Origin: Erythrobasidium yunnanense
Lineage: Eukaryota; Basidiomycota; Cystobasidiomycetes; Erythrobasidiales; Erythrobasidiaceae
Length of the DNA stretch: 64,000 bases
Direction: 5' to 3'
Assembly (NCBI GenBank): GCA_001600175.1
Contig: BCJC01000001.1
Coordinates: forward strand, 4,077,652-4,141,651
Shown: piece after piece, positions 8,039 to 43,892 of the stretch
Numbering within the stretch: the first letter of the stretch is position 1
Layout of the letters: each line of letters begins with the position of its first letter
Made by a program: the position numbers and the translations under genes
The notes under the pieces: model-generated
What the model was told of the DNA's origin: nothing
The model's database searches: none
What the model saw: the letters and a program-made list of their open reading frames with translations, nothing else

Positions 8039-8050
8039 GGTAGTAGTAAT

Positions 8051-8102
8051 ACGTAGTAATTAATACGTAGTAATTAATACGTAGTAATTAATACGTAGTA
8101 AT
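8051..8102. repeat. 14-bp tandem repeat, 3.7 copies
   Basis: The unit ACGTAGTAATTAAT starts at 8051, 8065, 8079 and 8093 (the last copy is cut after 10 bases). Copies are identical, so the array is young or kept uniform. It lies 13 bp after the stop codon of the polytopic protein gene, probably in its 3' untranslated region or terminator. The unit is AT-rich and contains the small palindromes TACGTA and ATTAAT. Confidence 0.95.
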
Positions 8103-21230: not shown

Positions 21231-23006
21231 AGTCAGCGTGGGTAATCTGTTGTTGACCAAACACACGAAATATTGGGCAGAATCGTTTGCAGGAAATACA
21301 GGCTACCTTGTCAGCGTGTCTTTATCTCCCAATTGTATTGCCTTCGTCATTCTTGAGTACACAAATGGTCGCAAAATTTCTATGACCTCGCGCACCGACC
21401 GCGTCGCTCCTTTCTTTCCTACCAACTCGAGGCTCAGCCTCGAGTCTGCAGCACCTTCACGGGCTGTATCTTACCAGAAAAAAGCAACATAAGCTCTTGA
21501 CGGTTCCAGCCAGACGCAAGTCTCGGTTTCAGCCAGACGTATGTCTTGGTTCGCCTACAGTCGCAGACTGAATGGCTTTCGGACGGCAAGCTCGACACCG
21601 TTATTCGGATACGGAGAAGCTGCATGAATGAGTCACCAAAGGACCGCATTTATATTGCGGATCCCACGGAAAATCTGAGACGAACTCCCGCTATGGATCT
21701 ATCATAATGACGAACATACGCGCGCGAGAAAGGCAGCCTATAAAGTGCACGTAGACTTTTATGGTACGGCTCACTGGCAACTGGCTCGTTCTATGCTGTT
21801 CGACAACTTCGAACGGTGTGCCTCGAGACAGTATAAACTATCGACCATCGGGAGAAGACCGCGATGAGCATCCTCACACACAGCATAGGTGCACCATGCT
21901 TTCTTTGGATGCGGGAAGGTCCGAGTGTATTCTTCGTTAGCACGTCCTTGCGGGACAAGAGGGCAATCCCCTCTGCGGGCATCACCAGACATGGTACACT
22001 CTACACGCGAAGGAACGTCCTTACACGCTCGACAAGACGCAAGTCGCCCTACATATCGTTCATTCCCATCTTTCAGGAAAACTGCATTTCTTCGTAAGAA
22101 GTCTCGCCGTTCAGACCAGTGGGCCGCATAGCCTGGTCAGGTCGCTTCCGTGAGTAGCCAGGATTACCAAGCCAAAGCGGACGGCAGTGCAACAATGCTC
22201 CAAGACGTCTCTTCATCGAGATCGAGAGCATTATGGGGGATATGTAGGGAGCGCGAGTCGTAAGCTGGTTTCCTAGCAATCAAGAGTTTGAGAAGATGTC
22301 AAGAAGATGTGCTGGAAGGCGAGCTCGAGCAGCTACGGCTTAGCGGCTAGCGCTGCTCGCTTCATGCTTTTCAGCTTCAGTGCAATACGCGGTGCGTCAC
22401 TTCTAGTCTTTGCGGATTGGGCAAAGAGCAGCCGCTGTTTCAATAGCTTGACAAAACTGTTTCCCTTCGATGTGGAGCAGGAGTAGTCACGTTTTGCGCC
22501 CTCATCGCACCTTGTGTGCGGAGAGTACAGTCGCATACGTGTAAGGCTTCCTGACACGGTTCGCGCTAGCTCTTATCGCACGGACTTCTAGTGTTCGTAA
22601 CTCAATTCGGACTACTCTTTCCCGATGGTCCTCCTATTCTACCCCTCCATTTTTTCACTTCCGTGATGACGAGGCGCGCACAAGTCTGTAGCATTGCTCC
22701 CTTTGGCTTACCAGAAGGGCACGCTGTACGACTGCGCGCCAGTCTGATCTCTTTCGTGCTTTCCCCTTCTTTCATCATGTTCCTCATGTATAGTAGGGTT
22801 AGTAGTTTGCGTCCCGACCTGTATCCATTCTGCAAATGCTTTGAGGATCAATCCTTTCATGGTTTGATCTTTGCGATCTCTGCTCCTATACAGACGCGAC
22901 ACCTGTTTACGCGCGGTCTTGGATGATCATCATATGACGTGCCGCTCGTGAAGATGCGCCAGAAAGGACTGCGCAAGTCAGCTCTTGACACCCATACTTT
23001 TTCGCG
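21231..23006. other. 1.8-kb stretch without a convincing gene
   Basis: The longest gap in the window without repeats. Frames here are short (under ~112 residues) on both strands and lack motifs. The best are minus-strand 22333-22557 (basic, ending KSMKRAALAAKP) and minus-strand 22602-22902, which contains a perfect CTACTAAC branch-like box. A small repeat, CAGCCAGACG plus about 10 further similar bases, occurs twice near 21508 and 21531. No tRNA, snRNA or transposon signature was recognised. A small intron-rich gene or non-coding RNA could be hidden. Confidence 0.4.
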
Positions 23007-40203: not shown

Positions 40204-42791
40204 CTAGTATCGCAACCAAACGAACTGATGTGGCTTCAGCTCGAGCCCCGCTGATCGTACTTCGGTATCGAAGCCAGAAACTAGATCGAAGGCGCTCTCT
40301 GGCAGACCAGTGAACTTCTCTTTGCCAACCCGCTGCGGCATATCATGGAAATTGGCCAGGCATAGCAAACGCGACCGCCTTCCGAAGCGTTGATACCCCA
40401 AGACGTGAGGATTGTCTGTATGGAAGCCTACCAGACGCCCTCCAGCTGCAGTGACAAGCGCAGATTAGCGCGAGTCAAGAGAGCTTAGAGCGGAATGCCA
40501 TTTACCGAGTTCTTCAGTACCTTTCCGCAAGCTGATCAGATTCCTCACGCCTGCATACACTTTACCAGCTAGAGTCGTGGGATCTTGACGATTCTTATAG
40601 TTGTCTGCTGGGTAGGCCGGTCTGTGGACCCAGCGAGTATCGTTGGCCTTAAGGAACACAATAGAAGTCAGATTGGCTCTTCAGCCAGGATTGAGGCACT
40701 TCCCCACCTTATCAGGCTGAGCAAGCACGCCATAGGTATTGAGCTGCCCCACTTCGTCTCCGAGATATAGCAAAGCTATACCACCAGTCGAAAAGGCCAG
40801 TGAGTACAGCAAAAGCAGGCGTTCGACTCCATGCTCTTCTCCTGATTCGAGACCAGCGAGACTACCAGCCGTACCAGCAATGCGACAGTCACCTGTCCGA
40901 GGATTATCTTGGTAAGGAACGCCCCGAGCGAACGAGCCTGGATGCCGGTTTACGTAGAACTGATTGAGGAAGCGTCGATGACTGTGGCTGTCGATACGGA
41001 GTTCCGCAGCATCTTCATCGGAGAAAACCCATTGAATATCCTGATCGTTGAGACGCAAGTTCAGCTTCGCACCTGGCGCTTGAACGAGCGTTTCACGCAC
41101 ATCATGCGATCTGACATAGTTCACCCAATGACATTTATCGGGATCTGCTAGACCATGCCACCTTTCTAGCGCTTGCTGAAGGAGGGAGACATTTCGCGTT
41201 GCAAGAGCTTCCCATCCTAGGCTCATCTGAAGAGGGTTGTATGAGAGCTGACATGAGGAAGCATCGATGTAGGTCGCAACGTCTCCGGGACGAGTCGCTG
41301 CTTCGGATTTGAAGAGTATTGACGGTGCAGCTATCCGGCATATCGCGTTAAAGGCTTTAACGAGCTTGTGTGCTTCAGGAAGATTCTCGCAATTGGTTCC
41401 CATACGTTTCTGGGTACATATAATGTCGGTCAGTGCTGATCAGCTGCGCTGCGTAGAGCTGCTTACCCAGATGTGAGCCACTGCATCAAGACGGAAAATA
41501 TCGACTCTGGCATTGACGGACTTCCAGTCAGCAATGTACTGTGTGCGATTCAGATAAAGGCCTACCCGACATTCGCCAAGAAAAGCATCTCGGCTGCCAT
41601 GGCTCGGAAGACAGCTGGATTGGAACTGTCGGAGCAAGGGTCAGCGATAGTCTTGCCAGACTATACATAGCGCACTAATTAAGGTCCCACTGGTAGTGAT
41701 GAAAGGTTGACCATATCCACCGTCCGTCTTGCAACTGGATGAAGGATCTGGGATGGCTCTCTAACACAGGCTTCAACATATGTAGAACCGCTGGAGGAAG
41801 GCTGACGCACCTGGCGTAAGAGCGCGTGTAGTCCTCTCGAATTCATTCGGTACACTTCGATCTGGGTAGATCCAGTAATATTGAGTATATTCCGCGTCTC
41901 CAGCAGCAGCCTTTTTAGCCCATTCGTGTTCGTTGGACGTATGGTTGAGCACTATACACGATTTTAGTAATGTCACAAGGATCTCTTTGTATGAAACGCC
42001 CACCGAGATCTATCACTAAACAGATGCCAGCGCTAGCTCCAAAGACGTTAGCGCGACTCCATCTCCTGGAAGACACCCGCTCACCTATGCAGCTCTTTAG
42101 CCAGAGCTCTGAGATCCCGCATAGTGCCTAAGCGCGCGTCCACGTCCCTATATGAGCTGATCGCGAATCCGCCATCCGAGTTCTTCTCCGGGCTCTTGAA
42201 TAGCGGCATCAGGTGAAGGTATGTGAGTCCAAGCTCTTTGAAGTACGGTATCCTATCTCTGATTCCGTTGACTTCGCCAGCGTAGAGGTCGACGTAGCTG
42301 TTTTCTCGTCAGACCTTCCGAGAAGTAGTCGCGCTTGTGCAACTCACCACATGCCTCCAACCTGATCAAAGCAGACTATGGATCAGCTTGTGTTACAGTG
42401 ACTGAGGATGCCGGGCTGCGAACCATATTATTACTCATGTACCATCCTGGCTTCATGAGACGTTCTTTGTCGACATGCTTGAGTTCTTCGGCTCGCTCAG
42501 TCCAAGATGCAGCAAGTGTGCGAACAAGGTCGACCAGGCTTTCAAGGCAGTCATTGCGGTATCCATACAATTCTGTCGGAGTTAGAGGGCAAGAGAAAGT
42601 AAGATCGCGCGCGTGTCGCATGAAGCCAGCAGTAACGGACCAGTATAGATGTCGTAGACTGTGAAGAAGTGGTAGTCGAGGTTGGCGAGGAAGAACGGAT
42701 CTTGAAGAAGATGCGCGTCTTCTGGGTCGGCTGCGAGCCGTGTCTTGATGTATGACAGGACAGCTGTCGACTGCTGAGTCGAAGACAGCAT
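40204..42791 (-). CDS. amylosucrase-like GH13 glucosyltransferase
   Basis: About ten exons, estimated near 640 residues, the usual amylosucrase size. Start [11 protein letters not shown], then [113 protein letters not shown] with the nucleophile Asp, [12 protein letters not shown] with the acid Glu, and NYVRSHD joined to [34 protein letters not shown] and [13 protein letters not shown] follow. These are specific to amylosucrase, which builds alpha-1,4 glucan from sucrose and releases fructose. No signal peptide, so probably cytosolic. A 60-nt intron (41041-41100) splits the catalytic HDD triplet. The family is mainly bacterial; many introns here argue that any transfer is old. Confidence 0.9.
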
Positions 42792-42960
42792 CGTCCAGGA
42801 ATATGTGCACCGTATTGATATGTTGTTGAGCCCTGATGGGAAGTAAGCACAGCGTCAGCGCAAGAGACAGTCTCCAGCATCATGCATGCCTTGCGAGACC
42901 GATCGACCCAAAACATGCGAAACATGCTCACGTGATCAGCGGCTGCCAGCGCAGACTCAA

Positions 42961-43860
42961 TCCTTGCAAGGACATTTGCTATCATTGATGGTGGAGATAT
43001 CAGACGAAAGCAAGATTTCCCTGCGGTGGTCTTTGCTATCATCGATGAATATCATCATCTGATGAGAACAAGATCTCCCTGCGGGGATTCTTGCTATCAT
43101 TTGATAATTCATCATGATAAATCCATCACGATGGAAATCATCAAAGAAAACAAGATGTTCTTGCAAGAATCTTTGCTATCATGGATCGCCTCCTATCTGG
43201 AATCAGGCACCGATCGCATATCCAAACTGGAAGGGAAAGCTGCAACATCGAAAACGGTGAAAACTTGGGGGGGAAGGGTAGGGATGGGGGGGCATCCATC
43301 ATGATGGATGTTCATCGTGGATAACAAGAATCCTTGAACAAATATCCTAGCAAGGATTCTTGTTATCATCTGATGGATGGTTCTGATGATGATCGAGCCA
43401 GGGGTACGCGCCCAACTCCTCTCACACCTCCTGAACCATCCCTGCAGGGATTTTTGTTCTCATCGATGATTTATATGATGGATGCATCTAATGATAGCAA
43501 AGTTCCTTGCAAGGATCCTTGTTTCCATCTCATGATGATGATGTTTCCATCATGATGCATCTATCAATGATAACAGATTTCCTTGCAAGGATCTTTGCTA
43601 TCATCAGATGGATGCATCTATCATGATGGATCATCAGATGCTAACAGATTTCCTTGCGGGGATATCCTGTTCCCATCTGATTGATGAGATATCTATCATG
43701 ATGGTTCATCAGATGCGAGCAAACATCCCAGCAGGGATTCTTGTTATCGTTGCTGGATGCATCATCACCATCAGATGCAAGCAAGCTCTCCCCGCAGGGA
43801 GCTTAGTTATCATTGATGAGAGATCATCCATCTGATGCAAGCAAGGATCCTTGCAAGGAT
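42961..43860. repeat. array of about 12 degenerate palindromic repeat units
   Basis: Two alternating modules. Module A is built on TCCTTGCAAGGA, itself a perfect palindrome (exact at 42961-42972, 43504-43515, 43580-43591), or variants such as TCCCTGCAGGGA (43439-43450) and CCTGCGGGGA, mostly preceded by a CAAGAT- or CAGAT-like flank and followed by TTTGCTATCAT. Module B is a spacer of 25-50 nt rich in CATGATGGAT and CATCAGATG, also palindromic; 43293-43310 is an exact 18-nt case. Core centres lie near 42966, 43021, 43081, 43164, 43350, 43444, 43509, 43585, 43656, 43732, 43794 and 43853, 55-93 bp apart with one larger gap where unrelated G-rich DNA (43200-43290) intervenes. No gene overlaps it. 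Confidence 0.9.
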
Positions 43861-43892
43861 TGGGTCTGCGCTCGCTTACAGTAATCCAAAGT

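What the first reader, a model, noticed from the sequence alone, without database searches (positions are those of the whole stretch)
42961..43860. Array of alternating palindromic modules between two unrelated genes
About a dozen units 55-93 bp apart each combine a TCCTTGCAAGGA-type palindrome with a TTTGCTATCAT half and a CATGATGGAT/CATCAGATG palindromic spacer. Copies differ at many positions, but symmetry is mostly kept: changes on one arm (CAAGG to CAGGG) are often matched on the other. That pattern suggests selection on pairing or on a symmetric protein site, and not simple slippage. It matches no repeat class I know. It could be a hairpin-forming transcript, a multi-site operator for a dimeric factor acting on the amylosucrase gene 170 bp away, or a dispersed genomic repeat.
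Basis: partly seen in the sequence, partly recalled or inferred. Interest (0 to 1): 0.7.

Follow-up and report, generated by a model that had tools for sequence, protein, structure and literature searches.

The report
Fungal foldback mobile element, conserved core
The palindrome array is one copy of a small mobile-looking DNA element scattered through a fungal genome; three unrelated kinds of palindromic array carry the same short guanine-rich core, and a faded copy of that core lies beside a Mutator-type transposase gene.

Summary
The 20.9-Mb genome, evidently fungal, shows seven such cores: three in this family (A), three in family B, one in family C. B and C have the same architecture with unrelated palindromes; cross-family matches are confined to the core. 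Two short A copies lack it. Copies sit beside unrelated genes, so an amylosucrase operator is not supported. Arms change together, but without an RNA strand signal; DNA-level arm correction is enough to explain it. The one MULE transposase gene found has a 5' flank matching family B's core region in order and orientation (score 61; 0 of 158 control pieces reach it, best 42). Best reading: non-autonomous Mutator/Foldback-type elements, closest to Tm1. Against: no target-site duplication in 8 of 8 copies tested; the MULE match is 104 of 167 columns, and families A and C do not match it significantly.

The parts
42945..43875 (+). Whole element, family A copy, written in the orientation in which the core's G-run reads forward
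   Evidence: Homology to copies on C2, C7, C9 and C6
42945..42956 (+). Left end, GCCAGCGCAGAC
   Evidence: The end motif GCNAGCGCAGACNC is at 6 of 6 ends of the three long A copies
43864..43875 (-). Right end, inverted partner GCGAGCGCAGAC
42961..43206 (.). Left palindromic array, four TCCYNGCNRGGA units
   Evidence: 65-68% identical between long A copies
43207..43292 (+). Conserved non-palindromic core shared by families A, B and C
   Evidence: Seven copies; 45 of 89 alignment columns invariant
43267..43292 (+). G-quadruplex-type run at the end of the core
   Evidence: Only such run in the 64 kb; present in 7 of 7 cores
43293..43390 (.). Middle array piece, one TCCYNGCNRGGA unit and a CATCATGATG palindrome
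43391..43416 (+). Second non-palindromic motif, GATCGAGCCAGGGGTACGCGCCCAAC; nearly unchanged in the three long A copies; a loose likeness (GATCG with C or G runs) in B and C seen by eye only
   Evidence: alignment; likeness to B and C not tested statistically
43417..43863 (.). Right palindromic array, seven TCCYNGCNRGGA units alternating with CATCATGATG-type palindromes
   Evidence: 83-91% identical between long A copies

Best explanation
The array is a non-autonomous DNA transposon of Foldback architecture: long, internally repetitive inverted arms made of alternating palindromes around a short conserved core. Shown: it is dispersed, bounded in family A, without a recognised gene inside, and belongs to a group of seven core-bearing elements in three array families plus two short A copies. 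Inferred: it was spread by a Mutator-like (MULE) transposase whose one recognised gene (contig C2, L081:3377-5296, minus strand) still has a faded copy of the core region in its 5' flank. The palindromes would be repeated sites for transposase or a host factor, and the core a subterminal or promoter-type signal of the parent element that its shortened derivatives kept. Arm symmetry is renewed by copying between inverted arms (template switching or gene conversion), which lets a family change its whole repeat sequence while staying palindromic.
For: Dispersed copies ending at shared ends. Same architecture with unrelated repeats around one core in three families. Long inverted arms of 59-104 nt at 76-87% complementarity around the core in several copies. 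Family B against the MULE 5' flank: scores 61, 44, 43, each unmatched by 100 shuffles and by 158 real control comparisons, all three aligning to the same stretch L081:5800-5957. The core profile's best hit in that 9-kb locus falls there (E=0.0096, next 0.98). Excess of paired double changes without strand preference. Published parallels: Tm1 and Galileo.
Against: No target-site duplication in 8 of 8 copies tested (exact; imperfect 9-mers no better than random). Ends of B and C were set by eye and are less sure. Only families B matches the MULE flank: C2_A is marginal (39; 4 of 100 shuffles), W_A, C7_A and C6_C are not significant, and no element matches the 3' flank. A filtered profile search of 118 kb did not report the MULE hit. 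The MULE flank lacks the G-run. No element with a transposase inside intact ends was found, and no empty sites could be checked. Two of the transposase families only were searched, the first without a working control.
Confidence: 0.62

Rival explanations
1. Working DNA sites (multi-site operator, boundary or replication element) kept by the host: proteins read the dyads and the G-quadruplex core, and the MULE gene is a domesticated factor that binds them.
For: The core is 83-92% identical within families although left arms are 65-75%; the G-run is kept in 7 of 7 cores; one uninterrupted MULE frame with a weak, sub-cut-off FAR1 match.
Against: In family A the right arm is as conserved as the core. 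Neutral keeping of the G-run in seven copies is not excluded (simulated 0.19 to 0.009 for 5-12% change per lineage, star tree). Neighbour genes share no theme that I can see. No expression or binding data.
Confidence: 0.15
2. A structured or hairpin RNA, or a small-RNA source, under selection for pairing.
For: Very stable predicted folds in the seven long elements (z -18 to -38); the core strand folds lower in six of seven; paired changes in excess; palindrome mismatches G-T 39 v A-C 24.
Against: DNA palindromes fold on either strand by construction; in the larger test one-sided changes show no G-T preference (56 v 42, p=0.19); the short A copies fold weakly (z -3.7 and -1.1); the core has no covarying pair; Rfam matches in the arrays are all below gathering scores and generic microRNA hairpins.
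Confidence: 0.1
3. Operator array serving the neighbouring amylosucrase gene.
For: The element starts roughly 100-200 bp upstream of the likely start of that gene (open-frame reading).
Against: Homologous elements near unrelated genes elsewhere.
Confidence: 0.04
4. A decayed local satellite with no wider meaning.
For: Tandem-repeat scores in parts of the region.
Against: Bounded homologous copies on four other contigs and a conserved core.
Confidence: 0.02

Closest known systems
Tm1, Mutator/Foldback family of root-knot nematodes (PMC3169594; abstract, one section and passages seen)
   Same: Inverted ends made of variable numbers of short repeats, a purine-rich motif at their inner edge, short non-coding copies of about 0.5-0.9 kb, a single transposase-encoding element of Mutator type in the genome.
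   Different: Tm1 repeats are about 14 bp and share one consensus within a species, with 9-bp target duplications. Here three families have unrelated palindromic repeats, no duplication is found, and an 86-bp core is shared.
Galileo / Foldback elements of Drosophila (PMC3688188 abstract and discussion; PMC3573991 passages)
   Same: Long, internally repetitive inverted ends, with several transposase-binding sites shown in Galileo; subfamilies; chimeric copies without matching target duplications.
   Different: P-type transposase and 7-bp duplications; about 40 bp of the termini are conserved between Galileo families, whereas here the middle is conserved and the arms are not.
REP/BIME arrays of bacteria (PMC2817692, search listing only)
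   Same: Regularly spaced palindromic units in alternating orientation between genes.
   Different: Bacterial, usually in high copy number, linked to a tyrosine transposase. Here a low-copy eukaryotic element with its own ends and core.

Membership tests
Non-autonomous TIR DNA transposon (MITE-like) | Terminal inverted repeats shared by copies | tested here: met
   GCNAGCGCAGACNC at 6 of 6 ends of the three long A copies; the two short A copies and families B and C have weaker or eye-set ends
Non-autonomous TIR DNA transposon (MITE-like) | Copies at unrelated sites | tested here: met
   Nine loci on C1, C2, C6, C7 and C9
Non-autonomous TIR DNA transposon (MITE-like) | Target-site duplication | tested here: not met
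   0 of 8 copies; the ninth, short C6 copy has no right end and was not tested
Foldback elements | Long, internally repetitive inverted arms around a middle | tested here: met
   Inverted arms; folding
Mutator (MULE) superfamily | Relation to a MULE transposase-bearing element | tested here: inconclusive
   Family B core region matches the 5' flank of the one MULE gene found; A and C not significantly; no MULE inside intact ends
Mutator (MULE) superfamily | 9-bp target-site duplication | tested here: not met
   Best imperfect 9-mers 5-7 of 9, random mean about 6.2-6.3
REP/BIME | Bacterial repeat with an associated RAYT tyrosine transposase | not tested
   Host is evidently fungal; no search for a tyrosine transposase was made
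Structured RNA family | Match to a known family at its cut-off | tested here: not met
   No match in the element at gathering score; weaker matches below cut-off
Structured RNA family | Strand-specific (G-T over A-C) keeping of pairs | tested here: not met
   56 v 42, p=0.19
Amylosucrase operator | Restricted to that gene or its pathway | tested here: not met
   Other copies near unrelated genes

The most novel reading that the evidence does not exclude
A single-copy, possibly domesticated MULE/FAR1-type protein reads a scattered set of palindromic arrays that descend from its own transposon. The arrays change their repeat sequence wholesale by template switching while keeping dyad symmetry, and the one fixed part is an 86-bp G-quadruplex core. 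This would be a regulatory or chromosomal network whose sites are recognised by shape and core instead of by repeat sequence.
Probability: 0.1. Interest if true: 0.85.

Novelty: new variant of a known kind. Interest (0 to 1): 0.5.

Why it matters
Galileo-type elements keep their outer ends while families diverge. Here the palindromic arms were replaced completely between families while a short middle stayed, which makes a direct case for studying how palindromes renew themselves by copying between arms. It also shows that paired arm changes are not by themselves proof of a functional RNA. The link to a lone intact MULE frame gives a testable partner.

Tried and rejected
RNA: Rfam at gathering score over the window (its one hit lies elsewhere) and permissive scans of two arrays, consensus fold of the core, strand test: no support. 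Outside copies: viral contigs and bacterial and archaeal genomes by one exact pattern each, plasmids and phages by distant DNA search: none; no fungal collection is on hand, so conservation in relatives could not be tested. Extra A ends: the end motif has 10 exact matches, 6 of them the known ends; the four others were fetched and are not arrays. Second motif: my genome pattern had the wrong spacing and found nothing; it is no evidence either way. DDE_1 transposase: no match, but the control did not ring either, so uninformative. TA target sites for family B looked possible by eye but hold cleanly in only one of three copies. Core tree: B together at 98, window plus C7_A at 92, C2_A with C6_C at 60 only; I rest no claim of core exchange on it. 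A first unit search with loose limits took in false units and was replaced. A first core alignment held one copy in the wrong orientation and was redone. One search counted imperfect pairs as G-T 39, A-C 24; the larger count is weaker, and neither is convincing. Keeping of the G-run by chance is not excluded. A likeness between family C units and an inverted motif flanking the MULE frame (itself reached by 4 of 200 shuffles) was noted by eye, but family C scores no better than chance against that flank (25; 91 of 100 shuffles). Among the 158 control comparisons per element, the highest score of all was 49, the window element against a piece inside the MULE locus; I did not follow it up.

Full report
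What is there. The window lies on contig C1 of a 20.9-Mb, ten-contig genome. A fungal Zn2Cys6 domain beside one copy and a nuclear RNase P RNA match exactly at its cut-off indicate a fungus; no name is given. The reported array is real: twelve TCCYNGCNRGGA palindromes from 42961 to 43859, with spacings of 57-94 bp and one step of 187 bp. CATCATGATG-type palindromes alternate with them. The region is self-complementary far above the rest of the window.

Limits and core. Comparison with other copies sets the ends at GCCAGCGCAGAC (42945-42956) and its inverted partner (43864-43875). It closes with GGGGGGGAAGGGTAGGGATGGGGGGG. This is the only run of four G3+ tracts with loops of at most 4 bases in the 64 kb; in 45 kb of other fetched DNA (12 loci) the only six such runs are the six other cores. 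A neutral simulation does not exclude that seven copies keep such a run by chance (0.19 to 0.009 for 5-12% change per lineage on a star tree).

Copies. (six cores), 15, 18, 19 and 32 together show seven cores. A 26-place pattern with up to three mismatches gave seven perfect matches, none with one or two mismatches, and ten with three. A G-run pattern found six of the seven and nothing else; it misses the C2 core because of one base at its start. Three cores lie in elements of the window's family A (C1, C2, C7), three in family B (C7 twice, C1; palindrome CACCAANNNNTTGGTG, period mostly 40-42 bp) and one in family C (C6; TTCATATGCATATGAA type, period about 53 bp). Two short A copies (C9, C6) lack it. 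Searches with each family's element found the other families only through the core; the tool scores only its best candidates, so counts are lower bounds. Core identity between families is 59-70 of 81-86 positions, and 45 of 89 alignment columns are invariant.

Divergence. Within family A the right arm is 83-91% identical, the core 83-92% and the left arm 65-68%; within B they are 78-84%, 90-92% and 71-75%. So the arms change at different speeds and the core is among the slowest parts, but in family A it is not clearly slower than the right arm.

Symmetry. Within family A units the arms match better than shuffled arms (p=0.0004, 0.002, 0.001); in B and C they do not. [quoted passage not shown] Cells from three sequence pairs are counted, so they are not independent. 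With G-U allowed, kept double changes number 16-24 in four family-and-strand sets, against 0-5 in 15 of 16 slid controls and 12 in the other. Of the 46 Watson-Crick double changes, 28 join arms more than 360 alignment columns apart and 18 lie in local hairpins (my count from the list). One-sided changes are 56 G-T, 42 A-C and 63 other, so neither strand is favoured (p=0.19). The structures tested were derived from the same sequences, which favours them. This fits correction at the DNA level; template switching is a published cause of such patterns (PMC8794818, abstract and start of introduction seen). Selection for dyad protein sites is not excluded.

Mobility. The window copy lies between the likely start of an amylosucrase gene (one exon matches PDB amylosucrases, E=3.7e-76; another matches alpha-amylase) and the end of another minus-strand frame about 20 bp away. 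Elsewhere copies lie near Zn2Cys6, TauD, shikimate-kinase-type and eRF1 genes. Gene limits are my reading of open frames, not annotation. No target-site duplication was found in the eight copies with two usable ends; the short C6 copy lacks a right end and was left out. In Galileo, chimeric copies lack matching duplications (PMC3573991, passages), so absence does not exclude transposition, but the feature is unmet.

Partner. One MULE transposase domain was found (C2:1438857-1439156, E=3.8e-9; the control rang in 3 of 14 genomes), in an uninterrupted 639-codon frame, with a weak FAR1 match under its cut-off. I tested all seven long elements, both strands, against both flanks of this frame (28 comparisons). 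Family B against the 5' flank, core orientation, scored 61, 44 and 43, and 0 of 100 shuffles reached any of these. The next were C2_A at 39 (4 of 100), then W_A 33 (21), C7_A 28 (72) and C6_C 25 (91); the 3' flank gave nothing better than 5 of 100. Against 158 real comparisons (79 pieces, both strands) none reached the three B scores; the best controls were 42, 38 and 39, so the second and third B scores stand only slightly clear. All three B elements align to the same stretch, L081:5800-5957, running through an array unit, the core and the next array unit; the best has 104 identical of 167 columns (104 of 144 aligned pairs). The core profile places its best hit in that locus there (E=0.0096, next 0.98), though a filtered search of 118 kb did not report it. 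A core copy within about 600 bp of the only MULE found is unlikely by chance in 20.9 Mb (about 5 in 10,000, my estimate). I therefore read the MULE as a relative of the parent element. Families A and C are tied to it only through the core they share with B.

Comparison. Tm1 of root-knot nematodes (PMC3169594; abstract, one section and passages) is closest: arrays of short repeats in the inverted ends, a purine-rich motif at their inner edge, a single transposase-encoding element of Mutator type. Galileo (PMC3688188, abstract and discussion) shows that such repeats can be transposase sites. The difference here is the wholesale replacement of palindromic arrays around a retained core. In six searches of the paper library the listed titles and abstract beginnings showed nothing describing such a set in fungi; the library lacks most subscription journals, and each search listed only its best papers.

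Verdict. A real, low-copy, Foldback-type element family, most likely mobile and MULE-linked by inference, new in its combination of features. Function as an operator or RNA is not supported by present evidence but not excluded.

Noticed in passing
window 40684-41439 (minus) and neighbouring exons to about 42800: An amylosucrase-like gene in a fungal genome: one exon matches PDB amylosucrases best at E=3.7e-76. The solved relatives are, as far as I recall, bacterial, so horizontal origin is possible.
   Followed up: no
window 21847-22626 (plus): Nuclear RNase P RNA match exactly at the Rfam cut-off, 28 bits.
   Followed up: no
window 8047-8102: Perfect tandem array of four 14-bp units, TAATACGTAGTAAT.
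   Followed up: no
L081:3065-3345: Three tandem 92-bp units, nearly identical, just beyond the 3' end of the MULE frame; a 13-base piece of the unit recurs inverted at L081:5792-5811 in the 5' flank (4 of 200 shuffles reach its score).
   Followed up: partly
L025:68-664 and 2338-2832: Open frames on both sides of the family C element end in similar peptides (FHTHFGMNCTWIGR, FQKHFGMTCTWV), perhaps a duplicated gene.
   Followed up: no
window element against L081:4001-5004 (minus): Highest control score of all, 49, inside the MULE frame region; simple-sequence likeness is possible.
   Followed up: no
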